A stretch of 55,303 bases of DNA, taken from positions 1 through 55,303 of the IMG/VR virus record IMGVR_UViG_3300006026_000017; one strand, given 5' to 3'. A program made the translations under genes and the position numbers. Source of the DNA: a virus. Positions 9,243 to 48,982 of the stretch are shown here, piece by piece (position 1 is the first letter of the stretch; each line of letters opens with the position of its first letter). The notes under the pieces were generated by a model. It searched no databases. It was not told where the DNA came from and saw only the letters and a program-made list of their open reading frames with translations.

Positions 9243-9453
9243 TTATGTAATATGGAAAGACTCCCTTGGTAACATTACTGAGGGATGGATTTATTTTGTG
9301 GGCCAAGAATATATAACTATTGAGATAGGTGTTAAATGTAAGGATGATGAAAATATTAAACACTGTCCATTGCATAAAAAAACACATTGTCTAGTTGTTT
9401 GTCACAATTGGTATTGGGATCAATTAAAATATATTAAATCTAGAGATGAATAA
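9217..9453 (+). CDS. Conserved cyanophage-type small protein (78 aa)
   Basis: MSYIPKINDYVIWKDSLGNI with WIYFVGQEYITIEIGVKCKD looks like an SH3-like or small beta-barrel domain. KHCPLHKKTHCLVVCHNWYW contains clustered Cys and His that might bind a metal. I recall close relatives only as unknown proteins in cyanophages. Its TAA shares bases with the ATG of the first oxygenase gene, linking it to the following cluster. Confidence 0.75.
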   Translation: MSYIPKINDYVIWKDSLGNITEGWIYFVGQEYITIEIGVKCKDDENIKHCPLHKKTHCLVVCHNWYWDQLKYIKSRDE

Positions 9454-10097
9454 TGAATATGTATTATGCTAAATCTTTGTTTCCAATACACATATTTCAA
9501 AACAACATAAAAAATAATCATATCCTTCAGGACGAACTTTTAGAAAAGATTGAGAATATGCATCAATCTGGAAAAATGAAAGTTCCAGATGGATGGTTAA
9601 CATCTAACCTATCTACATCATTTAGTTATTTTGATGAAAATAAATCTCTGTTTAATGAAACTCAAACGTTAGAGACATATTATGATTACGTTTCTAAATT
9701 TTTTGATTTAGAAACTGAATTTTCAATTTTTGCCATGTGGTGGAATTATTATTCCAACGGAGAATGGCAAGAACAACATACACATGTCTCTAAAAGTATT
9801 TTTGGATATCCGCCAACTTTTTCTTGTGTGCATTTTTTAAAATTTAATCCAGAAATACATGAACCGCTCATATTTGTTGATCCAAATGAGCATCTGAGAT
9901 ATTCATCTCTTGATATGGAATTTACTGGATATAATAACAGATATAAATTAAACGTAAGGGAAGGAGATCTTGTAATGTTCCCTTCATATTTGACACATTA
10001 TGTCAGACCAGGAAAACCAACTCCTGAATATCCTAGAATCACAATTGCCTTTAATTTAATACTTCAAAAATATGGAACACTCACACCAAACAATTGA
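9453..10097 (+). CDS. Predicted Fe(II)/2-oxoglutarate oxygenase (TIGR02466-like)
   Basis: 214 residues. The C-terminal half has the signature of the PF13759/TIGR02466 double-stranded beta-helix family: H109-T-H111 (QEQHTHVSKS), a following strand SCVHFLKF, GDLVMFPSYLTHYV with H182, and PRITIAFNL with R195 for 2-oxoglutarate binding. Such enzymes couple 2-oxoglutarate decarboxylation to hydroxylation, but substrates of the phage members are unknown. The start overlaps the stop of the previous gene. It is the first of four oxygenase-like genes here. The Arg and distal His are clear; the metal triad is inferred. Confidence 0.8.
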   Translation: MNMYYAKSLFPIHIFQNNIKNNHILQDELLEKIENMHQSGKMKVPDGWLTSNLSTSFSYFDENKSLFNETQTLETYYDYVSKFFDLETEFSIFAMWWNYYSNGEWQEQHTHVSKSIFGYPPTFSCVHFLKFNPEIHEPLIFVDPNEHLRYSSLDMEFTGYNNRYKLNVREGDLVMFPSYLTHYVRPGKPTPEYPRITIAFNLILQKYGTLTPNN

Positions 10098-10584
10098 TCT
10101 CTCGTTTTCGGATAATTTCCTCTCAAAAGAGGAGCACGAAATTATCTATGATTATTGTATCAAAAATGGGAGTTATACTTTTGGAGAAAGGGATCATGGA
10201 GATAGTGTTCCTTGTGGATTTGTGCATCAAATTCCAGAAACTCATCTTGTTTATAAAATCTTAGATAATATTTTACGCGAACGTGTAGAATTTATTCGCG
10301 ATATGAAATTGTCTAGGATGTATATAAATTGTTTTGCTCCAAGAGAGAATGGATATTTCCATACTGATGGCAATTTTATTACATTTTTATATTATCCAAA
10401 TTTAGAGCAGTATGATATTGATGAGGGAGGAGAAACAAAGTTTTTGGTAAATGACAATATTCAAGGTATTTTGCCTATACCAAATCGAATGGTGATATTT
10501 GATGGAAATATTAAACATTCGGCAACCGGTTTTCGAAATCACCATCGTTTTACTGTTGCAATCAAATATAAATATTCTTCATGA
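10072..10584 (+). CDS. Predicted prolyl-4-hydroxylase-type 2OG-Fe(II) oxygenase
   Basis: 170 residues with the P4H-superfamily core. H97-T-D99 in GYFHTDGN provides the HxD pair, followed by LYYPN and DEGGETKF. PIPNRMVIFDGNIKHSATGF holds the distal H149, and HHRFTVAIKYK has R159. In this superfamily the product can be hydroxyproline or another hydroxylated residue or small molecule. The start overlaps the end of the previous oxygenase by 26 bases. A CTAAATA box and the fibre gene follow at once, so a fibre substrate is an inference from position. Confidence 0.85.
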   Translation: MEHSHQTIDLSFSDNFLSKEEHEIIYDYCIKNGSYTFGERDHGDSVPCGFVHQIPETHLVYKILDNILRERVEFIRDMKLSRMYINCFAPRENGYFHTDGNFITFLYYPNLEQYDIDEGGETKFLVNDNIQGILPIPNRMVIFDGNIKHSATGFRNHHRFTVAIKYKYSS

Positions 10585-10589
10585 CAGAT

Positions 10590-10596
10590 CTAAATA
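10590..10596 (+). promoter_or_regulatory. Late-promoter-like box CTAAATA
   Basis: CTAAATA lies 20 bases before the ATG of the fibre gene, directly after the oxygenase stop. The same heptamer precedes 4269 and gp8. This would place the fibre gene under late control. It is a sequence match only. Confidence 0.5.
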
Positions 10597-10616
10597 TAAA
10601 AAAGAGACCTTGATAA

Positions 10617-13220
10617 ATGGCAATTTCTACTAATAAAACAGAAATATATGCGGAAGGTACAACTGATATTAGTTGGACTAGGTTTCAGACTAACTTAGGG
10701 GCACAAGAACCAACTAATATTAGATTTGGAGTTTATAAAAGAGATACATCAGATGCGGAACAACCATTAGTTCCTGATGCTATTGAAAATGAAAATATTG
10801 GTACAGAAGAATCTGGTAATCTTCGTGTTGGTGCTTTTCGTGGTGCAATTAAGGATCATACTGTAACTTTTGACAATGCTTCTGAATATGAAAACGTACA
10901 ATTTGACAAATATTTTGGTTCAAATTTAGTTAAAAATGTGCCAAAAAATCTTAATGTTGATGGCATTATCTATTCCAATAAAATTAACAAACCTGCTGCA
11001 AGAATAGATGTCGAAGAATCTGTTCGTAATTTCACCATTGATGTTGGAACATCTGGTGCAATTTATGGTGCTGGTGGACCTTCGTATCAGGGTCTTGACA
11101 ACTTTGATGGTTCTATTGGAGTTGTAGATGCTGCCATTAGCGAAAATCCTGCATGTGATGGTGCTATTTTGTATGGATGGTATACTAGAACTACAAATGC
11201 ATCAACAAACGGAACATCAAATATTAATCAACTTGTAATCATTTGGAATGGTGAAGTTGTATATAATGAACCTGGTAGTAACGTTAGTTTAACAACTGAT
11301 GATGGAACAGCATATTCAAATTGGGCAGATGGTGTAGATGCTTCTGGATGGTCTGCAAGTGATCTTTCCACTTATATGTTTGATGGTAATTTGAATACTT
11401 TTGCAAAAGCAGAAACTAGTAATACGGATTTCTTAGGATGGAGTAATTCGGGCACAAATCTTCCTGCACTTCAAGGTCCTGTAGAAATTTACATAAAATA
11501 TGCGGATTTTGCAAACTATTCATATGAAGTAAATGGATCAGGTGTTACGCCAACATTATATTCATCTCCGGCAGGGGAAGCTGACTGGCTTACTATTTCT
11601 GAAGGAACTGTCAATAGTTTTAGAGTGACAGCTCCAGCAAGTAATATTAATATTCAAATTGCTGCTATAAGATCAAATGGAGTTATATTAACTCCAACTG
11701 CATTATATGGTGGATCTGGAGTTAGTGGAGTTACAATTAATGGATATATATACAGTCCTTTAAGTCATTTTAATAGTACTAATGGATGGCATAAAGATGG
11801 TACAACATGTGGAACTGCTGATGGGAGTAATAGTGAGTTTGTAAATGGTTTTAATGTGGGCAGAAAACGACTGTCTAATGTTGATACATCAGCATATTCG
11901 ACATGGGCAGATGGTGTTCAAGCTTCTGGATGGTTTGCAAGTGATCTTTCCACTTATATGTTTGATGGAAATTTAAATAGGTTCTCAAAAGCAGAAACTA
12001 GTAATATAGATTACTTAGGATGGGACAACTCAGGTACAGGTCTTGCGACACTTCAAGGTCCTGTCGAAATTTACATAGCATATGCAAATGTTGGAAATTA
12101 CACTTATCAGGTAAATGGAGCATCTGTGACTCCAGATACAACAGGAGCACCAGATGCTGGTGCTTGGATTACTCTTTCGACAGGAAGCGTTAATAGTTTT
12201 AGAGTTACAGCTCCAGCAAGTAATATTAATGTTCAAATTGCTGCTGTAAGATCGAATGGAGTTATATTACTACATGCAAATCCACCATCTACTCAAATTG
12301 AAGGAATTTCTGGAGGAACGGCACTTTATGTTGATTCCGACTCAAATTCTCGTAATTTTAAGATTAGTTTAGAATCTTCTGGTGGTTCATTTGGTAAATT
12401 ATATGGTGGCGGTGGTGGTGGTATTACCGGCAATTCTGGTACTTCAGCATCAAGATCCAGTTGCGTAAGAAATCAAGATAATAGTTACAATTATGTACAA
12501 CCCCGAACATGTACTGGGTCATATACCAATCCACCTCAATATGGAAATACAAATACCCCTGCAACTGTTCGACGTTATCAACATACTCTAGGTCCTGGCG
12601 GTAGAAATGCCAACGAAGGTGAAAGAGAACAATCCAGATGGTGGGATCAGAGAGCAGAAAATCATTGTAGAACAGTTTATGGAGGAAATCATTATGGAGG
12701 GCATCCAGGACCTGGCGCAAATGGGCATAATGATTGGGATCCATATGTTCGTGCTGGTCACCCCTGGTGGGTAGAAGGTGCCTGGATACATTATTGTAAT
12801 TTTCCTGGATTCTCAAATCCAACTTATCCTGGAAATACTGTTTATTACAACTATTCTTGTCCTGCAAATATCTATGTGCCAGGAAGTCGTAGTTTTTCTG
12901 GTAGTATTACAAGTCCTGGCGGACTTGGTGGAATTGGAGGAAAAGGTCAAGGATATCAACGTTCATTTGAATCTGGAACAGCAGGTGGAACACCATCACC
13001 AGTTAGTTGTAGTTCATTAGGTTCACTTTGGAGTGGACCTTCTGTAACGGGAAGTACTGGATCACCTGGAACATCTGGTGGAAACTGGGGAGAACCAGGC
13101 ACAAGTTCTGATGTTGCGACTGGTGGATTAGCAGGATATTCGTATAAGAAATCAGAATCACAGATTGATATTGAAGTTATTGGTGGTGATGATAGTCGAT
13201 TAAAGGGAAGAAATAACTGA
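10617..13220 (+). CDS. Gly-rich tail-fibre or virion surface protein with duplicated domain
   Basis: 867 residues. The N-terminus (about 1-150) resembles the particle-attachment part of cyanophage structural proteins. Two related modules follow (residues 232-358 and 426-551), both containing ASDLSTYMFDGNLN, LQGPVEIYI and VNSFRVTAPASNIN, in the style of a beta-sandwich carbohydrate-binding repeat. The C-terminal third (about 600-850) is very rich in Gly, Pro, Tyr, Trp, His and Cys (GAWIHYCNFPGF, NTVYYNYSCPANIYV, SPGTSGGNWGEPG). A fibre or spike role is inferred from this composition and its late-like promoter. It sits among 2OG oxygenases, a zinc-ribbon pair and a halogenase, whose possible targets (Pro, Trp, Tyr) are abundant here. 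No chaperone is seen. Confidence 0.75.
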   Translation: MAISTNKTEIYAEGTTDISWTRFQTNLGAQEPTNIRFGVYKRDTSDAEQPLVPDAIENENIGTEESGNLRVGAFRGAIKDHTVTFDNASEYENVQFDKYFGSNLVKNVPKNLNVDGIIYSNKINKPAARIDVEESVRNFTIDVGTSGAIYGAGGPSYQGLDNFDGSIGVVDAAISENPACDGAILYGWYTRTTNASTNGTSNINQLVIIWNGEVVYNEPGSNVSLTTDDGTAYSNWADGVDASGWSASDLSTYMFDGNLNTFAKAETSNTDFLGWSNSGTNLPALQGPVEIYIKYADFANYSYEVNGSGVTPTLYSSPAGEADWLTISEGTVNSFRVTAPASNINIQIAAIRSNGVILTPTALYGGSGVSGVTINGYIYSPLSHFNSTNGWHKDGTTCGTADGSNSEFVNGFNVGRKRLSNVDTSAYSTWADGVQASGWFASDLSTYMFDGNLNRFSKAETSNIDYLGWDNSGTGLATLQGPVEIYIAYANVGNYTYQVNGASVTPDTTGAPDAGAWITLSTGSVNSFRVTAPASNINVQIAAVRSNGVILLHANPPSTQIEGISGGTALYVDSDSNSRNFKISLESSGGSFGKLYGGGGGGITGNSGTSASRSSCVRNQDNSYNYVQPRTCTGSYTNPPQYGNTNTPATVRRYQHTLGPGGRNANEGEREQSRWWDQRAENHCRTVYGGNHYGGHPGPGANGHNDWDPYVRAGHPWWVEGAWIHYCNFPGFSNPTYPGNTVYYNYSCPANIYVPGSRSFSGSITSPGGLGGIGGKGQGYQRSFESGTAGGTPSPVSCSSLGSLWSGPSVTGSTGSPGTSGGNWGEPGTSSDVATGGLAGYSYKKSESQIDIEVIGGDDSRLKGRNN
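11310..12269 (+). repeat. Direct internal duplication in the fibre gene (about 380 bp units)
   Basis: The DNA of 11310-11690 and 11892-12269 is related along its full length, starting at gcatattc and ending at ggagttatatta. The first base of each copy is 582 bases apart, with unrelated sequence between. Several stretches (caagtgatctttccacttat, agctccagcaagtaatatta) are identical, so the duplication is fairly recent or maintained by recombination. It encodes the two beta-sandwich-like modules. Confidence 0.85.
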
Positions 13221-13256
13221 TATAAATTATTTTAGATTATCTATTTTTAAGAAAGC

Positions 13257-13697
13257 ATGATGGAAGTTGATGAAGAATTTACGTTTGCTTTTGCCGCATA
13301 TCTTTTAAATTATGGTGAGGGTCTGGAAGCAAGTGAAAAGGAAATTAAGAGAAGATTGGAAATTTGTCAAACGTGTGACAAATTTCAAGCACTTCCTCCA
13401 CCAAATGAAGACGAAAAAGAGTCTCTTATGAAAAAATTTGGAAAAACAGAACCATTTCATGCGTGTACATTGTGTGGATGTTTATTGGAGGCAAAGGTCC
13501 GAACATTTTTTGATAGATGTCCTATAATGAAGTGGTATCCTGCGATTATTGACGAACAAGAATGTGAAAGAGAACAGTGGAAGAAACATCATGAAAAGTT
13601 TGTGAGATTATATAATCAAAAGGCAAACGATTATGTGCAGTGGTGGGCAAAACGTGATATAATTGAAGAAGAATTATCTGGTGATAAAGATGAGTAA
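13257..13697 (+). CDS. Zinc-ribbon-like protein (paralogue of 14285-14584)
   Basis: 146 residues. The core reads RLEICQTCDKF, then CTLCGCLLEAKVRTFFDRCP and IMKW: four Cys pairs or singles in a C-x2-C ... C-x2-C-G-C ... C-P-x3-W pattern. The protein at 14285 has the same order (RLNICNTCPYF, CKKCGCWLTHKVKFKISECP, ILKWG). This looks like a small zinc-binding module of a family known to me only as unknown. The N-terminus and C-terminus are charged helices. A TATAAATT box lies upstream. It overlaps the next oxygenase gene by 8 bases. A metal or protein-partner role is inferred. Confidence 0.75.
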   Translation: MMEVDEEFTFAFAAYLLNYGEGLEASEKEIKRRLEICQTCDKFQALPPPNEDEKESLMKKFGKTEPFHACTLCGCLLEAKVRTFFDRCPIMKWYPAIIDEQECEREQWKKHHEKFVRLYNQKANDYVQWWAKRDIIEEELSGDKDE

Positions 13698-14298
13698 TAT
13701 GAGTGAAATGGTTAATAACCGTGGAGAGTACCAAGATTTTATAGGATCATATTCAAATTTTATTGATAGTTCTTTATGCAAGTATATTATTAAGACTTTT
13801 AATTATTATCAAAACATTGGTGCTGTCATGTGTGGTGGCGAACAATTTAAGAATACTTGTGCCGGGAGATTTGATTGGGCAATTGATTTAAATGAAATGC
13901 AGTCACATATGAAAGATCTTCATCCAGATTTTTTAAATGATCAATTATCAAATGCATGGAATGAATATAGTACTATTTTTGGTAATTTAAGAGATAATGG
14001 ACCAGTTTATAGTTTAACTCAAAAGGTTCAAAAGACTCCAACTGGTGGGGGTTATCATGTTTGGCACGATGAGAATAGTTCTATGATTACTGGTAATCGT
14101 GTGGCAGTATGGATGTTGTATTTGAATGATGATTATGAAGGTGGAGAGACTGAGTTTTTATATTATAAGAAAAGAATACAACCTGAACGCGGAAAGTTAT
14201 TAATTTGGCCAGCAGGTTATACTCATTGTCATAAAGGCAATATGGTACTTTCTGGAACTAAGTATGTTATTACGGGGTGGTTTTATGGAGCAAAATAG
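13690..14298 (+). CDS. Predicted 2OG-Fe(II) oxygenase (prolyl-hydroxylase-like)
   Basis: 202 residues from the ATG at 13690, which overlaps the zinc-ribbon stop. The core reads GGYHVWHDENS (H126 with E128, an HxE instead of HxD pair), VAVWMLYLNDDYEGGETEFL, then GKLLIWPAGYTHCHKG with H179 and H181 as candidate distal ligands, and TKYVITGWFY with K191 as the probable 2-oxoglutarate base. The layout is a typical P4H fold. HxE sites are known in some family members but weaken the call of activity. It is sandwiched between the two zinc-ribbon genes, so a partner function is plausible. Confidence 0.75.
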   Translation: MSNMSEMVNNRGEYQDFIGSYSNFIDSSLCKYIIKTFNYYQNIGAVMCGGEQFKNTCAGRFDWAIDLNEMQSHMKDLHPDFLNDQLSNAWNEYSTIFGNLRDNGPVYSLTQKVQKTPTGGGYHVWHDENSSMITGNRVAVWMLYLNDDYEGGETEFLYYKKRIQPERGKLLIWPAGYTHCHKGNMVLSGTKYVITGWFYGAK

Positions 14299-14584
14299 AG
14301 AAGAATTTCCTTCATTACCTGAGCAAGGTAAAAATTTAACCAAGTTTATTGTTGAAGTTGTGAAGGATGTAGTTCCTAAAACTAAATCTAATTCTTCTGA
14401 TGAAATGAAGAAGTTGATCTTTACTTCAGCAGAGGAGCAACAACAAAGACTTAATATTTGTAATACTTGTCCATATTTTGCTGCACAAGAGAAAAGATGT
14501 AAGAAATGTGGTTGTTGGTTAACACATAAGGTTAAGTTTAAAATATCAGAATGTCCAATTTTAAAGTGGGGTAAAATCGAATGA
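14285..14584 (+). CDS. Zinc-ribbon-like protein, second copy
   Basis: 99 residues from the ATG at 14285, inside the end of the preceding oxygenase gene. An earlier in-frame start at 14264 lies deeper in that gene and is not used. After a charged N-terminus it carries RLNICNTCPYF and CKKCGCWLTHKVKFKISECP followed by ILKWG, the same spacing as the protein at 13257. It is shorter and lacks the C-terminal helix. The zinc-ribbon/oxygenase pairing occurs twice in a row, which suggests functional linkage. No reaction is inferred. Confidence 0.75.
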   Translation: MEQNREEFPSLPEQGKNLTKFIVEVVKDVVPKTKSNSSDEMKKLIFTSAEEQQQRLNICNTCPYFAAQEKRCKKCGCWLTHKVKFKISECPILKWGKIE

Positions 14585-15201
14585 CAAATCAAATTAATGA
14601 CGAATATATCTTTCCAATACCTTATTGGTGGATTGATATTACTGATATTGATAATGACAAGATGTTAGAAGCATGTTATGAGATAGAACGTAATGATCCA
14701 GGAAGAACTAGGTCAAATATTGGAGGATATCAAACAGTTGATTTATCTCATGATCATCCTGCATTTCGTGATTTATTAAATCATATACAATCGATTGCAG
14801 AGACTGTATATGAAAAAGCATATTTACCGTTTTGGAATTCTCCTTATAAGATTAGTATTGGTAATTACTGGTGTAACATCAATCGAAAACATGCTTTTAA
14901 TATGAATCATGTTCATCCAGGATCTTTTCTTTCTGGAGTATATTATGTAAAAGCAGATTCAGAATTAGATCAAGGTTCTATTACATTTCGTAGAGATCAT
15001 AATTGGGTAATGCAACATCGTAATTATTTTACAGATCCCAAAAAAAAGGGTGAATGTCCTGCATTTTTAGAAGAATGTGTAAGTTTACCTGCACGGACAG
15101 GAGCACTTTTATTATTTCCTTCATCTCTTCCTCATCACGTTGAACCAAATCAAACTGATGCTGATAGAGTTGCTATTTCTTTTAATATTGATTTAAAATG
15201 A
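14581..15201 (+). CDS. Predicted 2OG-Fe(II) oxygenase (TIGR02466-like), paralogue of 9453-10097
   Basis: 206 residues. It has the PF13759/TIGR02466 signature: SIGNYWCNINRKHAFNMNHV with H110-V-H112 and SFLSGVYYVK, then GALLLFPSSLPHHV with H185 and H186, and DRVAISFNI with R196. The fold and motif order match the oxygenase at 9453, but sequence has diverged strongly. It starts on an ATGA junction with the zinc-ribbon gene and overlaps the halogenase start by 4 bases, so it is probably translated with the halogenase. A substrate cannot be read from sequence. Confidence 0.8.
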   Translation: MTNQINDEYIFPIPYWWIDITDIDNDKMLEACYEIERNDPGRTRSNIGGYQTVDLSHDHPAFRDLLNHIQSIAETVYEKAYLPFWNSPYKISIGNYWCNINRKHAFNMNHVHPGSFLSGVYYVKADSELDQGSITFRRDHNWVMQHRNYFTDPKKKGECPAFLEECVSLPARTGALLLFPSSLPHHVEPNQTDADRVAISFNIDLK

Positions 15202-16817
15202 AGATTAAACGTGTATGTATTGTTGGAGCAGGTTCATCTGGATGGATGGCAGCTGCTCTTTTAAGTAAGTTATGTCCACATTTAGAGATTGCAATTGTAG
15301 AGGATAAGAATACCAAATCAATTGGAGTTGGTGAGTCAACTCTTGGGCATTTCAATAGGTTTCTACAATTGTTGGAACTTAAGGATGAAGATTGGATGCC
15401 TGCTTGTCATGCCACATATAAGAATTCAATTCGTTTCACCAATTTTAGAGAGGGAAATGGAGAATCATTTGAGTATCCATTTTCTCGTAAATTTGATGAT
15501 AAATTTGCACCAAGTGGCATGACCACCTGGGGGCAATTAGCACTTCTTGATCCTCATAACTTTGGTCCTGAAACATTTGCAGAAATGTTCACGGACAATA
15601 CTTTTCTTGCAAAGTATAATCGCTGTACTTATAATCAAGATGGGCGACTTCGTTCTTTTTATTTTAAGTATGATACTGCATATCATTTGGATGCAGATTT
15701 ATTTGGACAGTATTTAAAGAATAAGGTTGCTATTCCTCATGGTGTAAATGTTATTCAAGGGCATGTAACTGGATGTCAATCTGTAAGCACATCTGATTCA
15801 ACTCTTGAATATATTGTTCTTGATTATGAAAGGAAAGTATATGCTGATCTGTATATTGACTGTACTGGATTTAAATCTGAAATCTTAGAAAAGTTTGCTT
15901 CATCGCAATTTATATCTTATGATAAGAGGTTGTTAAATGATAGTGCTTTTGCCACTCAAATTCCTTATGTGAATAAGGAAGAGGAAATGCGTAATGTGAC
16001 TGACTGTCATGCTATGAACAATGGATGGGTTTGGAATATTCCTCTTTGGAATCGTATTGGTACAGGTTATTGCTATTCATCTAAATTTTGTACACGGGAT
16101 GAAGCAGAAGTAGAGTTTCGTAAACATTTAGGTGAACGTGGTAAGAATGCTAAACTGTCTCATATTAATATTAAACATGGTAGGCATACTGAAGCATGGA
16201 AATATAATGTAGTTGGTATTGGATTAGCATATGGATTCTTAGAACCTCTTGAATCGACTGGTTTATTGACAACACATGAAAATCTTATTCATCTTGCATA
16301 TACTCTAAACATGCGTGAAGGTTATATAACTCAGGTTGAAAGAGATAATTATAATTGTGTTGTATCAGAGGAAATTGATCATCTTAGTGACTTTATTGCA
16401 ATTCATTATGCTTTCTCAAAGAGAACTGATACACCCTATTGGAAAGAAGTTACACAGAATATTCATTATTATCCGACATCTACTAGTGAGTGGCAATTAA
16501 AATATGATAGTATTGTTAATTGGGGAAAGGATATGTATATAAATCATAGTTATCCTCACTCTGGAGTAGCATATATTGCTGCAGGGCATGGATTTAACCC
16601 AATTCCTTCTATTGATTTCTTACAATTTAATTTGAGTCGATTGGAATCTATGTGTGAGTTCATGGGGAAACCTAATCCTAGAACAAATAGTATTGAAGGA
16701 TTGAATGAACTTAAAGAACAATGGTTGATGTATCGTAGTGATGTGATAAGGTATGTTCAATCTCTACCAACACACTATCAGTTTCTGAAAGAGTACATTT
16801 ATAAGGGAGATTCATGA
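15198..16817 (+). CDS. Flavin-dependent (tryptophan) halogenase homologue
   Basis: 539 residues, the usual length. N-terminal FAD-binding GxGxxG (IVGAGSSGWMAA, residues 8-19), then IGVGEST (42-48). K75 in TYKNSIRF corresponds to the halogenase catalytic lysine (K79 in PrnA). GWVWNIP (276-282) is the class signature GWxWxIP, and LESTG (351-355) places E352 at the position of the conserved Glu. The enzyme uses reduced flavin and oxygen to make hypohalous acid and halogenates an aromatic ring. A viral member, VirX1 from a cyanophage, was reported to iodinate diverse substrates. Its flavin reductase is not seen nearby. It ends the coupled oxygenase/zinc-ribbon run. Confidence 0.93.
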   Translation: MKIKRVCIVGAGSSGWMAAALLSKLCPHLEIAIVEDKNTKSIGVGESTLGHFNRFLQLLELKDEDWMPACHATYKNSIRFTNFREGNGESFEYPFSRKFDDKFAPSGMTTWGQLALLDPHNFGPETFAEMFTDNTFLAKYNRCTYNQDGRLRSFYFKYDTAYHLDADLFGQYLKNKVAIPHGVNVIQGHVTGCQSVSTSDSTLEYIVLDYERKVYADLYIDCTGFKSEILEKFASSQFISYDKRLLNDSAFATQIPYVNKEEEMRNVTDCHAMNNGWVWNIPLWNRIGTGYCYSSKFCTRDEAEVEFRKHLGERGKNAKLSHINIKHGRHTEAWKYNVVGIGLAYGFLEPLESTGLLTTHENLIHLAYTLNMREGYITQVERDNYNCVVSEEIDHLSDFIAIHYAFSKRTDTPYWKEVTQNIHYYPTSTSEWQLKYDSIVNWGKDMYINHSYPHSGVAYIAAGHGFNPIPSIDFLQFNLSRLESMCEFMGKPNPRTNSIEGLNELKEQWLMYRSDVIRYVQSLPTHYQFLKEYIYKGDS

Positions 16818-17156
16818 AAAAAAGAGTTAAAATCACTAAAAATAGGTAAAAAAGTAATTAAAAAGGTATTTAAAAACATATATTAGTGTTTTGTTTAATG
16901 AGAATCAATTGCAATAAGAGTTGAGAAATACTTGTAGAAACCCCTCCAGGTCTTGTGAGTTTAGCGAGCGTACTATGAAACGCGAAGTTTGTCAAGTCAC
17001 GGGCGCGGCAAAATGCTACGAGATCCACACATTTCGTTACGAGATCTTATAAATAATCGTTATGAATCTCGACGAGATATATCAGGTATCATATACTTGA
17101 CATCTCGTCGAGACATCAGTATAATAACAACGTAACATCAAATCTCGACGAGAATC
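16818..17156 (+). other. 339-base intergenic region, mostly non-coding
   Basis: The longest spacer in the window. It has an AT-rich first 90 bases, then a mixed-GC part. A 25-codon ORF (16975-17052, MKREVCQVTGAAKCYEIHTF) and a 12-codon ORF at 17062 are possible but unsupported. It holds the TATAAATA late-like box at 17048-17055, two palindromes and part of a third, several copies of the ACGAGAT heptamer, and the consensus promoter at 17097. I see no tRNA. The likely function is regulation or replication initiation. Confidence 0.6.
17097..17125 (+). promoter_or_regulatory. Consensus sigma70 promoter with an operator-like palindrome in its spacer
   Basis: TTGACA (17097-17102), 17 bases, TATAAT (17120-17125): a perfect consensus. 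The 17-base spacer contains the palindrome TCTCGTCGAGA (17103-17113). A protein bound there would block polymerase. A second palindrome (17143-17153) lies downstream of the start and a third upstream (17067-17077). The arrangement resembles a repressed early promoter. The regulator is not identified. Confidence 0.8.
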
Positions 17157-17354
17157 ATGTACGACGACTACGAGTTCGAATACGAGTATAACAACGAGTC
17201 ATATACATACGATCTCGACGAGATGTGCGAGTATCATATGGCACGTTCACAAACATCTATGCGAGATATGCACGAGACATATCATAATGATGATGATGAG
17301 TATGCACGAGATTCATGCGATTATGACACGCTTGCATACAGGCATTATGCATGA
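17157..17354 (+). CDS. Tyr/Asp/Glu-rich small protein
   Basis: 65 residues with 12 Tyr, 19 Asp or Glu and only 4 Arg and no Lys (YDDYEFEYEYNNESY, MHETYHNDDDEYARD). The ATG follows the third TCTCGACGAGA palindrome and the promoter at 17097 with a short leader and a weak GAGA purine site. Its composition is that of an acidic DNA-mimic-like protein, but it may be partly a by-product of ACGAG repeats read as Tyr-Glu, Asp-Glu or His-Glu codons. No family is recognised. It could also be a non-coding repeat tract that is open by chance; the context of promoter plus start favours expression. Confidence 0.5.
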   Translation: MYDDYEFEYEYNNESYTYDLDEMCEYHMARSQTSMRDMHETYHNDDDEYARDSCDYDTLAYRHYA

Positions 17355-26313: not shown

Positions 26314-29300
26314 ATGGCAGATACTAAATTTGACGCAAGAATAAAAGTAAGTCAAATTATAAAAAATCAAATTCCAGAATTTATTTCTTCAAATGAAGAA
26401 AATTTTGTGGAATTTTTAAAGCAGTATTATATTTCCCAAGAATATAGAGGATCTTCTTTAGATATTGGCAGCAATTTTGACCAATACCTTAAATTAGACA
26501 ATCTTACTCATGATACGGTATCAAGAGAATATGTCCTTACGCAAAATGTGTTTTATAGTGATGATGTAATTCATGTAGATTCTACATCCGGATTTCCTGA
26601 TGAATATGGACTACTGAAAATAAATAATGAGATAATTACATATACTGGAAAAACTTCAACTTCTTTTACAGGCGCAATACGTGGATTTAGCGGAGTTGAG
26701 TCTTTTGATGCTGAAGATAGAGGTCAAAAAAATTTAGTATTTAGATCGTCTTCTGTAGAAACACATTCGACAAATGATAAAGTATTAAATTTAAGTAATT
26801 TATTTTTAAAAGAATTTTTTAAAAAATTAAAATATCAATTTTTACCTGGTCTGGAAGAAATTGATTTTGCTTCTGGACTTAATCTAGGAACTTTTATTAA
26901 AGAATCAAAATCATTATTTCAATCAAAGGGAACAGTTGATTCGTTTAAGATATTATTTAAAGTTCTTTATAATGTTGATGCAAAAATAATAGATACTGAG
27001 GAATTTTTAATCAAATCATCTTCTGCAGAATATATTAGGAGAAAAGTTCTTTTTGCTAGATTGCGCAGTGGAACAAATCCAACAAAAATAATTGGTCAAA
27101 CTTTAATAAGTTCAGATGGAACAGCATCTGCACCAATATCTGAAATTGATTATTATCCATCAACAGGCGGAGATGATATATACAGAATTTCTATATTTGA
27201 AGGATATAATGATAGAGATCTTTTGATAGGATCTTTTAAGGAAACTCCAGTAAGTAAAGTTATCGGAGATGTTTCTGCAGGATCGCAGACAATAACAGTG
27301 GACTCTACCGTTGGACTTCCATCTTCTGGTAATGTAATATCTGGAAACAATTCAATATCATATACTAGAAAATCAGTAAATCAATTATTCGGATGTAGTG
27401 GAATATTAGAAAATATTTCTGATTCTGATGAGATAAAATCTAGTGATTATGTATACTCATATGAGGATGGTGATGTTAATAAAATAGTCACATTTGAAGT
27501 CAAAAACATTTTATCCGAATTTAATTTTGATAGTAATTACAATTTAGTAGAAGAAAATGATCCTATAAGTATTAACAATTTGGGCGAGTATGTAGAGGAT
27601 GTTGGGGAAGACAATACATATAAGCAATTTGTTTTTAATAGTTGGATATACAATACTTCATCCAGGTTTCAAATTGAAAGTTCTTCTAGTAATACTTCAC
27701 ACATTTTACGGGAGCACCCAAACAAAAATAGTTTGAAAGTAGGAGATGATATTCAAATTTTTTATAGAGGTTCTATTCAACCTATTGGTGAGGCAACTGT
27801 TCTCAGTATTTTTGCGAACCAATCAAATTCTACAAAAGGAGATTTAATAATTTCAAATTTGGTTCTTAATAATCCTAACATTGATTTAACAGAGGGTTTA
27901 AATCTGGACATTAGAAGAGTTATTAAAAAAGCAAAAATTTCATCCACTTCAATACCCTTGAAGTATTCTGATGTTATGGCAAACATTCAGAATACTTATG
28001 ATGAGGACAGTAAAAATATATACGTTGCAACCAATTCAATACCAGATTATGAAATAAATGCAGAGGATATATCCCTAGAAATTCAAAGTTTGGATGCGGT
28101 AAGTAATAATACGATTATTTTTTCTTCCGAAACATCGTTAAAATTTTTATTAGGAGATAAAATAACTTACACTCATTCTGCAGATGGAAATGCGATTATT
28201 GGATTGGAAAATAATAAAGAATATTTTGTTAAGGTTCAAAACCAAAATGCCATAAAATTATATACATCATTATCTGCAGTAGTTACGGATACGTTCCTAA
28301 CACTATCGACAGAGTCATTAACTGCATCCAGCCATAAATTTACATTATCCAAACTTTTCTCGAAAGAAATAGTACCAAGTCTTTCATTAAGAAAATTTCC
28401 ATTAGAATCTAGCAAAAATACAAGAACTAAGATAAAAACAATTCCAAATACAACTGTTGCTACTTTGATTAATGGTGTCGAAGTTTCTACCTATAAAGAT
28501 GTTGATAGGGTTTTTTATGGACCTATACAAAAAATAGATATTTTAGAACAGGGAGAAAATTATGATGTAGTAAATCCACCGCAAATTCAAATAAGTGACC
28601 CAACAGGAATTGGTGGAACTACATGTTTAGTTTCTCCAATCATTTCTGGATCAGTAAAATCAATTTTACTTGATGTAAAAGATATACCAATCAAAAAAAT
28701 ATCATCAGTTTCAATATCTGGTGGAAATGGCACTGGATGCGTTTTAGAGCCAGTTATTGAAAACAAACACAGAGAAATTGAATTTGATGCAACTATCAGT
28801 GTTAATGCATCCACAGATTCTATTTCATTTGTAAATAATCATTATTTTAGTGATGGTCAAAGAGTAGTTTATAATAAAAATAATAATGATCCAATAGGAA
28901 TAGGAACATTTGGTGGATCTAATTTAGATCAAAATAAATTTTTGTTAAATGGTGGATCTTATTTTGTAAAATATATAACTGCCAAAAGTATAGGATTATA
29001 TGAGTCACTAAATGATTATATTGCAGGAATTAATACTGTTGGATTTACTACCACAAATACTGCTGGTATTCATAAAATAAGAACCTTTGATTATGATAAA
29101 TTATTAACAGACATTCGTGTAATTGAACCTGGTAGTGGATATGAGCATAGAAGTATTATTATTACTCCAGAAAACAGAAATATTTCTATATCAACAACTC
29201 GATCTTCAATTAATTTCAAAAACCATGGATTTAAAGATGGTTCTATTGTAAAATACACTAGTACTAGTGAAATTTCCGGATTAAATAATTCGCAAAATTA

Positions 29301-32300
29301 TCATTTAATTAAATTGGATGATGATTCTTTTAGATTAGCAAATGACCAAATTGATTATTCTAAAAAGAAATATATTAATTTTGGGGATATTGGTGGTAAT
29401 GTAGATCATATATTTAATTATTCTTCAATTACTGTAGATATTAACGTATCATATGCAAATACTGGACAAATAATTACCGCTACTCCTGTGGTTAGGGGAG
29501 AAATTATTGATATTAGCATTAATGAATCTGGGAGTAAATATGGTTCTGAGGTATTAAATTATGAAAATCCACCTTTAGTTTTTATAAAAAATGGAAAGGG
29601 TGCTGTAGTATCTCCAGTAATTATAAATGGTATAATTGATAGTGTTACCGTACTTAATGGTGGATCTGAGTATTATTCATTACCAGATCTTATTATTAAT
29701 ACAAAATCTGGTGCTGGTGCAAAATTAAAACCAATTATTGATACTAGCACTGGAAAATTAACAGGTGTTTTTGTAGTAAAAGGTGGTATTGGTTACAAAC
29801 AGTCTGATACTATCGATGTTGAAACAGTTGGAAAAGGTTGTAAAATTAATCCAAGAATTAGACCTTTAACAATTAACTCAAATTCAAAATTTGGAGATGA
29901 AACTATAAGACCCATAATTAATACTCAAGAAGCAACATATACGGTTCTTGGTTATTTGGACAAATTGAGAGAATCTTTAAAAGATAACTTTGGAACAGAA
30001 AATTCAGGATCTGAGCACTCTCCAATTATTGGGTGGGCGTATGATGGAAATCCAATTTATGGATCATTTGGTTATATAAATCCAAATGATGCTACTGCAG
30101 TAAAGAGAATTGAGTCAGGATACACTTTAGATTCCTCTAAAATTTATGATAGACCAAGTTTAACAAGTTTTGCTGAGGGAATATTTGTTGAAGATTATGT
30201 TTTTGATGGTTCTGGAGATTTAGATGAACATAATGGAAGATTTACAAAAACTCCAGACTTTCCAAATGGAACATATGCATATTTTTCCACGATAATTCCT
30301 GATCCAAGTATTCCTGGAAAATTTTTGCCAGATTTTCCTTATTTTATAGGAGACACATATAAATCAGATCTTCTTGATGGAGTTTTGGATCAAAATCAAG
30401 AAAATTTCGATCTGCAAAATTCTGGTTTATTGAGAAATACTGCACCATATAGACTTGGGCAAAAGTTTTCCAAAAATGATTACGTAGATTTTGAATTTAT
30501 TGATAGATTTGATGCAGCAAAAATCGATTTTTCATCTAAAGGGGATATTTCATCTTTTTCAATAGATGTAGATGGATTTGATTATAAAGTTGGAGATCCT
30601 TTAACTTTTGACAATTCTAAGGTTCAAGGTTCTGGAGTTTCTGCAGAAGTTTCTGAAGTTAAAGGTAAAGACATAACATCTGTTTCTTATACGGAATTAA
30701 AAGAATCGAATGTTGTTTTAGAAAAAGAATCATTTGGATTGAGACTTCATGTTAACCCTTATCATACTTTTAATAATCAAAGTTATGTAAAGATAGACAA
30801 TGAGTCAACCAATATACCGGGATTGAGTGGGTTTCATAAAATTAATGTAGAATATAACACATCAGTTTTAAGTGAAGAAATAGTTATTAATTCTGGAATA
30901 GTTACTGATATTTTTGTATCATCTATCCCAAAAACAATTTCCATAGGCAGTACCATAGGAATTGGGACTGAAAATATGGAAGTATTGAATGTTTTCAATA
31001 ATAGTAGAATTGTTAGAGCAAAAAGATCTGTTTTAGGTATAGCACATAGTGTTGGATCTGTTGTTACATACAGACCGGATTCATTTACAATACCTTTTGT
31101 TATAGATGAAATTGACTCTTTTAAAAATAAAAAAGTATATTTTAATCCTACACAATCAATTGGGATCGGAACTACTCCAGGAAATTCATCAGAAGTTTCT
31201 TATACAATTAACAATATAGAAAATACAATATCATTATTGAATGGATCAATCTATCTTCCAAATCACGGATTTAAAGATAAGGAAAAAGTAACAATTGCTC
31301 GCCCTTCCGGAACATCTGCAATAACAGTTCACAATAATTCGACTGGTAACCAGTTCCAATTATTAAATTCTGTTGAAAATGAAACGGTTTATATTATTAA
31401 AAAATCTGATGATATTGTTGGTATAATTACATCTTTGACTGGCATTGGAAACTCTGATTCTGGGTTATCATTTGTTACAAATGGTACAAATGATCATGAA
31501 TATTATTTCCAATCACAAAATAATCAAATAACAGTTGATGCTAGTGAAATTAATGCTACCGTATCTGTATCTACTAGTCATGGATTACAAAAAGATGATA
31601 TTGTGAAATTGAATGTGATTCCGAATAATAATGTTGGAATAGGGTCTTCGACATCGTTAAAGTCAATATTCAATACTAATATCCAAAGAATTTTAATTAA
31701 TCCTGTAGGATTTAATTCATCAGGAATTAATACAACAAATAACTCTATAACTATTCCAAATAATAATTTTTCAACTGGAGATAAAGTGTTCTATGAAGCA
31801 GATATAGAAGCTTCTGGATTATCTACAGGATCGTATTATTATATTTTAAAGTTAAGTGATGATGTAATTTCCTTATCGGAAACTTTATATGATGCAACTT
31901 CAAAAAATCTAGCAGTAGTGAGTATTGGAGGAACTGGAGGAAGTTCTCAAAAATTAAGTCTTGTAAATCCACAAATCAATGTAATTAAAAATAATAATCT
32001 AGTTTTTGATATAAGCGATTCTTCATTTGCTAACAAAACAATTAAGTTTTTTAAAGACAACAATTATGTTAATGAATTTATTTCAACATCGGATGAAACT
32101 TCTTTTAATGTAATTGGTGTTGGAACTCCTGGACAATCTGGAGCAAAAGTAACGTTAAATTATACAGATAGCATTGATTATGATTTATACTATATTGTCG
32201 AAGATCTGGTAGAAGGTGCTTTTGTTTTGCCGGATAAAGATGTAAGGTCTTTCTCCAAAATTTCATATATTGATAGTTTTTATAATAATACATTTACAGT

Positions 32301-35300
32301 TTCAAGTGTTGGATTAACCACATTTGCAGTTAATCTTGTTGGTCTACCAGAAGTATCACAATATACAACAGGAGATGTAAAATCTTTCGAATATTCAACA
32401 AATTCCAAAACTGCGATTGGACCTATATCAAAAATTAGAAAAGTATCTCCTGGATTCAATTATAAATCATTACCATCATTTACTGGTGTAGAAAGTGATT
32501 TGGGTGATGGTGCAGGTATAAGTTTATTGACTAATACAATAGGAGTACCTCAAAGTATCAATATAGTTAATACTGGATTTTCATTCCCAACAGACAAAAC
32601 TTTATCACCGAGCGGCATTCTTCCAATTATTGCCAATTTAAAAGAAAATCAACAAATATTAGATATTACAGTAACATCCGGTGGAAGTGGTTATTATTCA
32701 GAACCATCAATGGTTCTGGTTGATTCAGAAACAAGAAAATCTGTAGATACTGCATCCTTTATTGCGGAATTGGATGGAAGTTCTATTTCTAGAGTTGTTT
32801 CCGTAAATGCAACCGGATTAGATCTGAAAAAATATGAATTAATATCAACAAATAATACTAATGGAATTTTAATAAACACTATTGAATATCAATCCGGAAT
32901 TGTAACTTGCATTTTGAGCACACCAATTGGAGGATTTTTAACTCCTCCATTTGCAGCAAACGACCAAATATTTGTTGAGGGAGTTGAAAAAACAGACACA
33001 AGTGGTGATGGATTTAATTCCACAGATCTTGGATATCGATATTTTACTGTATTAGAATATCAAAACACCTCTCCAGCTAAAATAGTATTTGATATAAGTA
33101 AATTCACATCTGATCCAGGGACTCCCATTAAAACACAAACCTTTGCATCTGTCGTTAATAAATCAGCACTTCCAACACTTGAAGTTACTCTAGAGGAAAG
33201 TCCATTTATTCCTAATGAAGAAATATTAATAGATATTGGTAATGGATACGTACTCTCAGATAACATTATTATAAGTTCTGAAGCAAATATTGCTAAAATA
33301 GATGGACCAGATTTTATTAAAGTTGGATATAGTATAAAGGGAATAAGTTCTGGATCAACTGCAAAAATCAATAAAATTACTTCATTGTCCGGAAGATTTA
33401 AAATAAATCCAGTATATTCAACCAGTGATGGATGGAGATCAAATACGGGCGCATTAAGTGAGGACTATCAAGTTCTTTCTGATAATGATTACTATCAAAA
33501 GTTGTCATATTCAATTAAGAGTCCCATATCATATGAAACTTTAATAGATCCTGTTAATAAACTAGTACACTCAACGGGTTTAAAGAATTTTGCAGATGTT
33601 GGAATTACCTCTTCCGTTTCAATTGGTCTTGGAGATACTACTTCAACACTCTCGATTGTTATTGACTTTGCTTCGGATTTGAGAATTGATAGAATAAAAG
33701 AATTTGATATTGTAAAAGATATTGATGTAGTATTAGAAAAAGATTTAAATCCGGGTAATATTGATCAATATATTAAAAAGTCAAAATATGTTGAATTTCA
33801 GAATAAAAACCTAACAGATTATTTTGTATGCAAAACAAACAGAGTATTATCAATTGATAATGTTGAAAATGAATTTTCCAGTGTTACTTTTGGGCAAGAA
33901 AAATACGTCGATCTTATTACATATCCAAGATTTTTAAAATATTCTAGTTTCTTAGTTCAAAGCGTTGGTATTGGTAGTACAGAACAACAATTTGATGACT
34001 TAGTTGTTTTAAATGATAATCTTAATAGTTATACTATCAATAGAGGAACACTAGTAAATTCGAATGAAATAGAATATTATAGTGAAGTTGGTGGATTTCT
34101 TGATGAATTCGGAAACTTGTCTTTGAGATACGAACCAGAAGATCCTTTCGAAAAAACTTATAATATTAAAGTTTATAGAAATAATTTTGATACTGGTTTA
34201 AGTGGGATAGGAACAACATCTATAGGATTTGTTGACATCACTTCAAATGTTAAGACGGTGGGAGTTGGTTCAACTTCACAAATAGTTGGTATTGCAACAT
34301 CTTCTACTGAAGCAATTTTAACTGAGATTATTGCCATAGATTCGTTGACAGATAAAATAAATTTCTTTGAAGTTGCAACTGTCAATAATGGAACAATTTC
34401 AAACCATGCAGAATATTATTTTGATACTGAAAATTTAATCGGAAAGAGTTCTGATCCATTTGTATCAATTGGTTCTACAATTGATACAAATGGAACTTTG
34501 AAGATAAATTTAACTAATCTGAAATCAAATAATATTATCTACAAAACAAAAACTATAAACATTGGACCGTCTTCAGTTGGTCTTGGATCTACATATAGAT
34601 TTTTGGCAAATGGACAACCAGAAGGTTCTGAAAGATCTGCTTTTCTTCAATCAACACACGTTGAAACCGGAAATCTTTCTGTTGGATTAGGAACAATTAT
34701 AGCATCATTTGATTCAAATACAGTTGCATCTTCAAAATCACTAGTAAAAATTAAAAATATTGATAGTGGCAATACATCTGTCCATCAAATTTTATTATTA
34801 GATGACAAAACAGATACTTTTATAATGCCAAAATTCTATGTTTCTATGGCAAGTACAACTGGCATTGGAACATTTGATTCAAATATTGTTGGCGGAAATG
34901 CAAATTTATTGTTCTACCCAGATTTTAATGCAAATTATGAAATAAGCATGTATTCTCAAGTTCTCTACAGAGAATTGGATATTGAAAATATAACTTTAGA
35001 CAAAGAATATGGAAATATTATAGAATCTATTAAAAATAGCAGATTTAATGCAATTAATGGTGATGGAAATGATCAATTGGAATTTGAAATGGAATATAAT
35101 GGAGTACCAATTTTCCAAAAAACATTCGATCCTACAGACACTGCAAAGTTAAATAGATCTACTGGAGTATTTTCAATAAATGATCACTTCTTCAGTAATA
35201 ATGAAAGTCTAACATATACTCCAACATCAACTTTCTTAGGAGTTGCAGCAACTTCTATTGGAATTGGAACAACATCCGTAGGAGGAACAGTTTTTGTTGG

Positions 35301-47983: not shown

Positions 47984-48955
47984 ATGCCAAAAGTTCTTGT
48001 AAAAAGAAGTGGCGAATCTTTAGTTTCAGTAAAAGACCGAGTAGGTTCTGAAAATGCTGTAAGAGTTTTAACAAGTGCAGCATCTGCTCCTGCAAAATTA
48101 ACTCAACTCGATGATGTTGATAGTACTAATAAAACTGATGGAGTATTAGTAGTTTACGACGCACCATCCAGTAAATTTGTAATGACGGACACTATTGATG
48201 GTCCGATAAAAATTACTGATACGACAAATTCAATATCACCTTCTACTGGAGCATTAGTAGTTTCTGGTGGTATGGGTGTAGGTGGAAATCTTCATGTTGC
48301 AGGAATTGCAACATTTGGTACAAGTACAATTGTAATTGATGGTGATAATAATACAATTACTATTGGAGAAGAACTTTTTATTGGAGCAGAAGAATTAAGA
48401 AGTTCTACATTAAAAGTTAGTGGAAACAGTACACTTGGTTCTAGTGGAGGTATAACCACAACAGGTGGTGATTTATTTGTAGGTCAAGGTCTTCAAGTTG
48501 CTGGAGTTTCCACATTCATAGGACAAGCAACTTTCAAGGGAGGAACTATAAATCTTGGAGATGAAAATTCTGATAATATTAATATTGGAGGAGAGTTTGT
48601 ATCAAATTTAGTTCCTGATGCAACGAATTTATATGATCTCGGAACTGATGAGAAAAGATGGAGAAACGCATTTGTTTCAGGAATAACTTCAACAAATAAT
48701 TTATATGTTGTTGGAGTATCTACTTTTACAAATACCCTTAATATAACTGGTATATTAACTGCAAGTCAAGGTCTTTATTATGATGCTAATGATTTTGATG
48801 GTCCTAATGGAATTGCATATTTTAATAATACCGGGAAATTAGTAAGTGCTACTAGTAATGCCACAGAAACTCTTACAGAAACAAATTTAGTTCTAACCAC
48901 AAATTCTTCCGGAATTCCTAAATGGTCTTCAGTGATAGATGGTGGAGAGTTTTAA
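47984..48955 (+). CDS. Fibre-like virion protein with repeated motifs (323 aa)
   Basis: The N-terminus (MPKVLVKRSGESLVSVKDRV) is followed by AKLTQLDDVDSTNKTDGVLV, a phage-fibre-like shaft start. The body has repeated Gly/Ser/Thr beta units (GGMGVGGNLHVAGIATFGTS, GLQVAGVSTFIGQATFKGGT, VVGVSTFTNTLNITGILTAS) of the kind used for triple-beta-helix fibres, with LYDLGTDEKRWRNAFVSGIT typical of tail fibres. It could be a collar or tail fibre; T4 has wac between gp12 and gp13 at this position, so a fibritin-like role is possible. Confidence 0.7.
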   Translation: MPKVLVKRSGESLVSVKDRVGSENAVRVLTSAASAPAKLTQLDDVDSTNKTDGVLVVYDAPSSKFVMTDTIDGPIKITDTTNSISPSTGALVVSGGMGVGGNLHVAGIATFGTSTIVIDGDNNTITIGEELFIGAEELRSSTLKVSGNSTLGSSGGITTTGGDLFVGQGLQVAGVSTFIGQATFKGGTINLGDENSDNINIGGEFVSNLVPDATNLYDLGTDEKRWRNAFVSGITSTNNLYVVGVSTFTNTLNITGILTASQGLYYDANDFDGPNGIAYFNNTGKLVSATSNATETLTETNLVLTTNSSGIPKWSSVIDGGEF

Positions 48956-48961
48956 TAAATA
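48954..48961 (+). promoter_or_regulatory. Late-promoter-like box AATAAATA
   Basis: AATAAATA overlaps the fibre gene stop, 22 bases before the gp13 start. The T4-type spacing fits. Confidence 0.55.
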
Positions 48962-48982
48962 ATTTTAAAGGAATATTCATTT

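What the first reader, a model, noticed from the sequence alone, without database searches (positions are those of the whole stretch)
9453..16817. Oxygenase/halogenase cluster built around a Trp/Tyr/Pro-rich fibre: possible virion-tailoring system
Seen: four predicted Fe(II)/2OG oxygenases (9453, 10072, 13690, 14581), two paralogous zinc-ribbon proteins (13257, 14285) and a flavin-dependent halogenase (15198) surround an 867-residue fibre whose C-terminal third is rich in Pro, Trp, Tyr and Gly. From 13257 onward the genes are joined by overlapping starts and stops. Known: such enzymes hydroxylate Pro or small molecules and halogenate aromatic rings; VirX1 is a cyanophage halogenase. Inferred: the cluster modifies the fibre, or a shared small substrate or host surface glycan.
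Basis: partly seen in the sequence, partly recalled or inferred. Interest (0 to 1): 0.75.

Follow-up and report, generated by a model that had tools for sequence, protein, structure and literature searches.

The report
Phage tail-fibre halogenation/hydroxylation gene cassette
A cyanobacterial virus carries, in one gene block with a tail-fibre protein, a halogen-adding enzyme closely related to the known iodinating enzyme VirX1 and four oxygen-adding enzymes; because related phages swap such enzymes in and out together with the fibre tips, the fibre itself is the most likely target, which would answer what VirX1-type enzymes do in nature.

Summary
Four Fe(II)/2OG oxygenases, two Cys-ribbon proteins and a flavin halogenase flank an 867-aa fibre, with overlapping genes from 13257. 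The halogenase is a VirX1 orthologue (crystal 6QGM, E=6e-206; sister to VirX1/Syn9 in the tree) with intact catalytic motifs.

Comparative work favours the fibre-tailoring idea. Gly-rich tip proteins of the Syn9 gp38 family occur in exactly 20 of 50,697 phage records, the same 20 that carry the closest VirX1-type halogenases, and the genes are adjacent. Two near-identical groups of S-RIM44 isolates differ by a whole swap at one locus: tips + chaperone-like gene + halogenases + oxygenases versus another tip + one oxygenase. The same two cassette kinds alternate at a second fibre locus (Syn9, S-RIM8). Enzymes therefore follow the tip type, not the place. Late-promoter-like elements precede fibres and tips but no halogenase (0/13) and 1/43 oxygenases, so enzymes are probably read through with fibres. 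In the window's nearest relative only the halogenase is cleanly missing.

Not shown: any modification, or which residue. Trp/Tyr/Pro richness does not distinguish halogenase-linked tips, so that part of the first argument fails. Published proposals found do not mention fibres.

The parts
9453..10097 (+). OX1, Fe(II)/2OG oxygenase (PF13759-like, HxH..H..R motif)
   Evidence: orthologue upstream of the fibre in L048
10072..10584 (+). OX2, Fe(II)/2OG oxygenase (PF13640-like, HxD..H; weak FlmC-family match)
   Evidence: orthologue in L048
10567..10574 (+). late-promoter-like TATAAATA, 50 nt before the fibre start
   Evidence: conserved position in L044
10590..10596 (+). late-promoter-like CTAAATA, 27 nt before the fibre start
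   Evidence: conserved position in L044
10617..13220 (+). 867-aa fibre / candidate substrate; tandem repeated middle domain, Gly-rich variable C-terminal tip
   Evidence: no PDB or significant Pfam match
12297..13220 (+). C-terminal tip region of the fibre (Gly/aromatic-rich, conserved Gly motifs with variable loops)
   Evidence: structure prediction failed (pLDDT 27.6)
13257..13697 (+). ZR1, Cys-ribbon protein (phrog_13558 / DUF6171-like)
   Evidence: present in L044
13690..14298 (+). OX3, prolyl-4-hydroxylase-like Fe(II)/2OG oxygenase (HxE..H)
   Evidence: nearest solved structures are collagen-type P4H and LH3
14285..14584 (+). ZR2, Cys-ribbon paralogue
14581..15201 (+). OX4, TIGR02466/PF13759 oxygenase; orthologous to oxygenases of VirX1-type cassettes
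15198..16817 (+). VirX1-type flavin-dependent halogenase; cleanly absent from the sister contig

Best explanation
The block is a fibre cassette: one adhesin-type tail-fibre protein plus the enzymes that oxidise, and in this phage also halogenate, side chains of that fibre before or during virion assembly. Proposed working order: the late promoter before 10617 drives fibre and downstream enzymes together (inferred); P4H-like and PF13759 oxygenases hydroxylate residues in the fibre (inferred); the VirX1-type halogenase, using host-supplied reduced flavin, adds Br, I or Cl to exposed Tyr or Trp in the tip loops (inferred); the ribbons act as small metal-binding assembly helpers (weakly inferred). 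The likely benefit is altered receptor binding or greater tip stability in seawater. Shown: gene content, intact motifs, orthology to VirX1, co-occurrence and joint swapping of tips with enzymes. Not shown: the reaction, the residue, or presence of the fibre in virions.
For: (1) Co-occurrence: Syn9 gp38-family tips hit exactly 20 of 50,697 records, gp40 the same 20 plus one weak, identical to the 20 records with the best window-halogenase matches, 37.8-56% identity over at least 99% of the query. (2) Adjacency in Syn9, S-CREM1, Sf-FP1, P-TIM40, S-WAM1, P-RSM6, S-RIM44, S-SZBM1 and IMG/VR contigs; halogenase within 5 kb of a PF21722 tip in 9 of 13 genomes, 1.3 expected by rotation, at most 8 in 20,000 trials. 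(3) S-RIM44 isolates with about 95% identical downstream flanks swap tips+gp40+2 halogenases+oxygenases for another tip+121-aa gene+one oxygenase; the second trio sits at another fibre locus in S-RIM8, comparable to where Syn9 has the first kind: enzymes follow the tip. (4) Late-promoter-like elements precede 14/25 tips and the window fibre, 0/13 halogenases and 1/43 array oxygenases. (5) Window halogenase sister to the Syn9 copy, support 100/99, 6QGM best hit; the ten best phage hits of OX4 all lie in such cassettes. (6) Oxygenases resemble protein hydroxylases: OX3 to P4H/LH3; JmjC_2 members in related arrays. (7) The usual tip folds like the Pam3 receptor-binding fibre (7ypx, E=1.5e-7).
Against: No modification has been measured. 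The 20 records are only about 8 lineages. Tip composition shows no Tyr/Trp/Pro enrichment. Some VirX1-type halogenases lie elsewhere (S-B64 in the replication module, L024) and more distant ones sit among metabolic genes. The window's fibre is not a Gly_rich_2 tip and its structure prediction failed. The nearest relative keeps fibre and oxygenases without the halogenase, so halogenation is not essential. OX clustering is only modest in several genomes (P 2e-5 to 0.39).
Confidence: 0.66

Rival explanations
1. The enzymes modify the host cell-surface receptor or glycan during infection, for example to block superinfection or re-adsorption of progeny. They are linked to the tip because both concern the same receptor.
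For: Receptor-blocking genes beside receptor-binding genes are known in other phages (own knowledge). This explains tip-linked swapping equally well.
Against: Enzymes appear to be read through from late structural promoters, late for exclusion. No secretion signal or membrane anchor was noticed in the enzymes, though none was tested for. Related oxygenase families resemble protein hydroxylases.
Confidence: 0.14
2. Auxiliary metabolism: the halogenase makes a halogenated small molecule (antibiotic protection) and the oxygenases draw down 2-oxoglutarate or act on metabolites or damaged DNA.
For: These are the published proposals (PMC2984593, PMC3037559, PMC10452541). Distant halogenases do sit among metabolic genes.
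Against: No PKS/NRPS or other small-molecule pathway genes were seen in the cassettes examined; enzymes swap with tips at two loci; 1:1 co-occurrence with a tip family.
Confidence: 0.12
3. Hitch-hiking: fibre loci are recombination hot spots that collect unrelated morons; the linkage has no functional meaning.
For: Cyanophage genomes hold many oxygenases elsewhere, and clustering is weak in some genomes. The window block lies in a small-gene region that lacks it in S-SKS1.
Against: The same gene order is kept across distant genera with overlapping genes. Cassette type, not location, predicts the enzymes. Tip family and halogenase type match 20/20.
Confidence: 0.08

Closest known systems
VirX1 (cyanophage Syn10 flavin-dependent halogenase, PDB 6QGM)
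   Same: 56% identity over the whole protein, identical catalytic blocks, sister branch in the tree (Syn9 copy); lies in a related fibre-tip cassette.
   Different: VirX1 is described as a broad small-molecule iodinase; the review read here lists no pathway or native substrate for it (PMC8407142). The window's copy sits in another fibre cassette with two Cys ribbons and only four oxygenases.
T-even/S16 gp38 adhesin and cyanophage Pam3 fibre gp24 with chaperone gp25
   Same: Usual cassette tips are Gly-rich with variable loops and match the Pam3 fibre fold; a gene of about 155 aa follows them, comparable to the 162-aa chaperone of the Pam3 fibre (PMC9608196).
   Different: The passages read on gp38 and Pam3 mention no modifying enzymes. 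The chaperone identity of gp40 is by position only (no structural or Pfam match). The window fibre itself does not match the tip family.
Mimivirus L230 collagen lysyl hydroxylase acting on viral collagen L71
   Same: A virus-encoded Fe(II)/2OG enzyme that hydroxylates the virus's own collagen-like protein (PMC9546862).
   Different: Eukaryotic giant virus, collagen substrate, glucosylation rather than halogenation; no cassette with an adhesin.
QhpG / LodB maturases
   Same: Halogenase-like flavoenzyme; QhpG dihydroxylates a Trp inside a protein (PMC7876137). Weak sequence matches to the window halogenase.
   Different: They take part in making a quinone cofactor in an enzyme (LodB from own knowledge); they do not halogenate and are not viral.

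Membership tests
Flavin-dependent halogenase (VirX1 type) | FAD motif GxGxxG, WxWxIP motif, catalytic Lys and Glu | tested here: met
   GAGSSG, WVWNIP, TYKNSIRF Lys and PLEST Glu identical or equivalent to 6QGM; PF04820 337 bits, cut-off 21
Flavin-dependent halogenase (VirX1 type) | branches with VirX1 rather than with other phage halogenases | tested here: met
   sister to the Syn9 copy L002_h9001, 100/99; Syn9 and Syn10 copies score alike
Flavin-dependent halogenase (VirX1 type) | halogenating activity | not testable with these tools
   needs assay
Fe(II)/2OG oxygenases | facial-triad motif and family score above curated cut-off | tested here: met
   OX1, OX3, OX4 above cut-off; OX2 just below (24.9 vs 27) but HxD..H kept
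Fe(II)/2OG oxygenases that modify proteins | protein substrate | tested here: inconclusive
   OX3 nearest solved structures are P4H and LH3, substrate not shown
VirX1-type tip cassette as in Syn9/S-RIM44 | Gly_rich_2 (PF21722) tips | tested here: not met
   window fibre has no PF21722 match; Syn9-type tips do
VirX1-type tip cassette as in Syn9/S-RIM44 | about 155-aa phrog_1787 gene after the tips | tested here: not met
   absent from the window block; two phrog_13558 ribbons instead
VirX1-type tip cassette as in Syn9/S-RIM44 | fibre + VirX1-type halogenase + orthologous oxygenase in one overlapping run | tested here: met
   (fibre to ZR1 gap is 36 bp; ZR1 to halogenase overlap)
gp38-like polyglycine adhesin | PGII sandwich fold | tested here: inconclusive
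   window tip model failed (pLDDT 27.6); related Gly-rich tips match Pam3 fibre
DUF6171 Cys ribbon | Pfam curated score | tested here: inconclusive
   18.0 and 23.5 bits vs 27; phrog_13558 5e-11 and 5e-16

The most novel reading that the evidence does not exclude
A widespread family of cyanophage cassettes in which halogenases and multiple oxygenases chemically diversify the receptor-binding tips (halogenated and hydroxylated residues), a post-translational layer of adhesin variation with tip-specific enzyme sets that are exchanged as units; this would be the natural role of VirX1.
Probability: 0.5. Interest if true: 0.92.

Novelty: new variant of a known kind. Interest (0 to 1): 0.76.

Why it matters
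VirX1 is a well-studied biocatalyst for which the review read here lists no native pathway. If its substrate is the neighbouring fibre tip, this would be an example of a bacteriophage halogenating its own virion protein, would help explain why marine phages carry so many 2OG oxygenases near tail fibres, and would add a chemical layer to host-range evolution. It is directly testable by mass spectrometry on existing phage isolates (Syn9, Syn10, S-RIM44).

Tried and rejected
Composition as evidence: tips near halogenases are not enriched in Tyr/Trp/Pro (a few minus-strand tips were read poorly in that script, so it is a weak negative). Folding the window tip: pLDDT 27.6, discarded. Direct tblastn of the window fibre against phages: no match. 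The tip profile against PDB sequences: none. gp40 as a Tfa chaperone: no sequence support, position only. 'Only the VirX1 clade is tip-linked': rejected, the label is scattered over the tree (7 changes against 7.5 shuffled), so tip linkage is the common state with exceptions. Simple counts of late-promoter motifs: not enriched overall (6 vs 14 expected and 4 vs 7 expected), so only their positions are used. DNA base modification by the oxygenases: no modifying partners in the block; the phrog label 'DNA endonuclease V' looks like a mislabel. Literature search for FlmC: nothing. The primary VirX1 paper is not held, so a remark on gene neighbours there cannot be excluded.
Full report
WHAT IS THERE. 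The window is a 55.3-kb IMG/VR virus fragment of a T4-like cyanophage; its gp13-like protein is 85% identical to that of Synechococcus phage S-SKS1. OX1-OX2 overlap, and all genes from ZR1 to the halogenase overlap. All 88 examined PF13759/PF13640-type relatives carry HxH or HxD, with a distal His in nearly all full-length rows, and the halogenase shares the catalytic blocks of VirX1, the best PDB hit (6QGM, E=6e-206). In a tree of 45 phage halogenases it is sister to the Syn9 copy (100/99); the Syn9 and Syn10 genes score alike against it.

NEAREST RELATIVE. Only one other contig in the viral collection was found to encode a relative of this fibre (61-62%) and of the ribbons (ZR2 88%). It has OX1, OX2, fibre, ZR1, OX3, ZR2, OX4 in the same order, the same pair of late-promoter-like elements at -49 and -27 of the fibre, but no halogenase anywhere in its 17.3 kb. 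At the junction the OX4 stop is followed directly by the sequence that follows the halogenase in the window. The halogenase is thus an accessory gained or lost as one gene. Its own closest relative (70%) sits in a Syn9-type cassette (L008). The two fibres differ by a repeated middle domain, a large Gly-rich insert and variable tip loops.

THE GENERAL PATTERN. Across phage records and IMG/VR contigs the VirX1-type halogenase lies at the end of tail-fibre genes: large fibres, two or three Gly-rich tip paralogues, a gene of about 155 aa, one to four halogenases, then a run of oxygenases, mostly overlapping. The tips match PF21722 and phrog_863, category tail, and their predicted fold matches the Pam3 cyanophage fibre (E=1.5e-7, TM 0.54), whose TNF-like and Gly-rich domains are described as recognising the host (PMC9608196). 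The model is of moderate confidence (pLDDT 67).

STATISTICS. The Syn9 gp38 tip family is found in 20 of 50,697 records. These are exactly the 20 top halogenase records (37.8-56% identity over at least 99% of the query); gp40 gives the same 20 plus one weak hit. About 463 records named Synechococcus, Prochlorococcus or Cyanophage carry a gp13 homologue, so a match of two sets of 20 is not chance, although relatedness reduces them to about eight lineages. In whole genomes, a halogenase lies within 5 kb of a PF21722 tip in 9 of 13, against 1.3 by rotation (never above 8 in 20,000). Oxygenase clustering around the halogenase is significant in some genomes and weak in others (P 2e-5 to 0.39), because these phages hold many oxygenases elsewhere. 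Of 31 halogenase loci of at least 11 kb, 24 have a Gly-rich tip, 24 have two or more oxygenases and 20 have both; three have neither (the window itself counts as without a Gly-rich tip by that rule).

NATURAL EXPERIMENT. S-RIM44 isolates fall into two groups. KX349291 has three Gly tips, gp40, two halogenases and a run of oxygenases between the giant structural gene and gp13. KX349292, with a 94.8% identical downstream flank, has at that place a non-Gly tip, a 121-aa gene and one PF13759 oxygenase. Its tip family occurs in 78 records. In S-RIM8 the second trio lies at a different fibre locus, before the methyltransferase and helicase, comparable to the separate fibre locus where Syn9 carries the first kind. 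So two cassette kinds occur at two loci in all four combinations: enzyme content is predicted by the tip, not by the position. Sf-CH11 shows a third arrangement, two Gly-rich fibres around two oxygenase-type genes, a halogenase and two further oxygenase-type genes.

EXPRESSION. T4-type late-promoter-like elements (consensus from own knowledge) precede 14 of 25 tips, 5 of 8 gp40 genes, 3 of 3 gp13 genes and the window fibre, but 0 of 13 halogenases and 1 of 43 array oxygenases. The motif is not enriched overall; only the positions are informative. The simplest reading is read-through from fibre to enzymes late in infection. OX1 and OX2 lie upstream of that promoter.

MECHANISM. Enzyme families point to protein substrates: OX3 is closest to bacterial and human collagen-type prolyl and lysyl hydroxylases, and related arrays contain JmjC_2 proteins, whose characterised relatives hydroxylate ribosomal proteins (own knowledge). 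VirX1 has an open, accessible active site (PMC8407142), and a halogenase-like flavoprotein, QhpG, is known to act on a Trp inside a protein (PMC7876137). I therefore propose hydroxylation and halogenation of fibre-tip side chains. What is shown is genetic; the chemistry is inferred. Tip composition does not help to choose the residue.

LITERATURE. Held papers propose antibiotic protection (PMC2984593), 2OG/NtcA control or DNA repair (PMC3037559), or host-metabolite change (PMC10452541) for these enzymes; none of the passages or search results read proposed the fibre. The primary VirX1 paper was not available. Viral precedent exists in mimivirus, whose L230 hydroxylates viral collagen L71 (PMC9546862).

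VERDICT. Real, intact, and part of a broader pattern for which I found no description; the fibre is the best-supported substrate (0.66), without biochemical proof. The window itself is a variant: it fails two defining features of the usual cassette (PF21722 tip, phrog_1787 gene) while keeping an orthologous halogenase and oxygenase beside a fibre.

Noticed in passing
window 17067-17223: Four perfect TCTCGWCGAGA palindromes (0.3 expected even with one mismatch) downstream of the halogenase; one lies in the spacer of a perfect TTGACA-17-TATAAT promoter at 17097-17125, just before the ORF at 17157. It looks like a repressor-controlled early promoter; the region is conserved in L044.
   Followed up: partly
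cassette oxygenases, e.g. window 9453-10097 and 14581-15201: 54 of 88 oxygenases carry HxH instead of HxD at the metal motif, with a near-invariant distal His and Arg: a possible three-His Fe(II)/2OG site.
   Followed up: partly
phrog_274 and phrog_1644 annotations: PHROG labels 'DNA endonuclease V' and 'minor coat protein' are attached to families of 2OG-oxygenase-like (PF13640, DUF6445) proteins, probably mislabels that spread to phage annotations.
   Followed up: no
S-RIM44 KX349292 104394-106274 and S-RIM8 NC_047733 27938-29946: A second, commoner trio: non-Gly tip + about 121-aa gene + one 2OG oxygenase, found at two different fibre loci. It suggests oxygenases are partners of fibre tips well beyond the halogenase cassettes.
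   Followed up: partly
record behind L031 (handle G020), 48121-49332: A second halogenase copy is interrupted by one TAA; partial halogenase matches also remain in P-TIM40 at 183737-184705.
   Followed up: no
L009 from 19861, L013 from 16710, L018, L020: Some contigs hold four or five halogenases of several clades around one tip cluster, as if each tip had its own.
   Followed up: no
window 26314-38715: A single 4133-aa ORF between gp6-like and gp8-like baseplate genes, unusually long for a T4-like baseplate protein.
   Followed up: no
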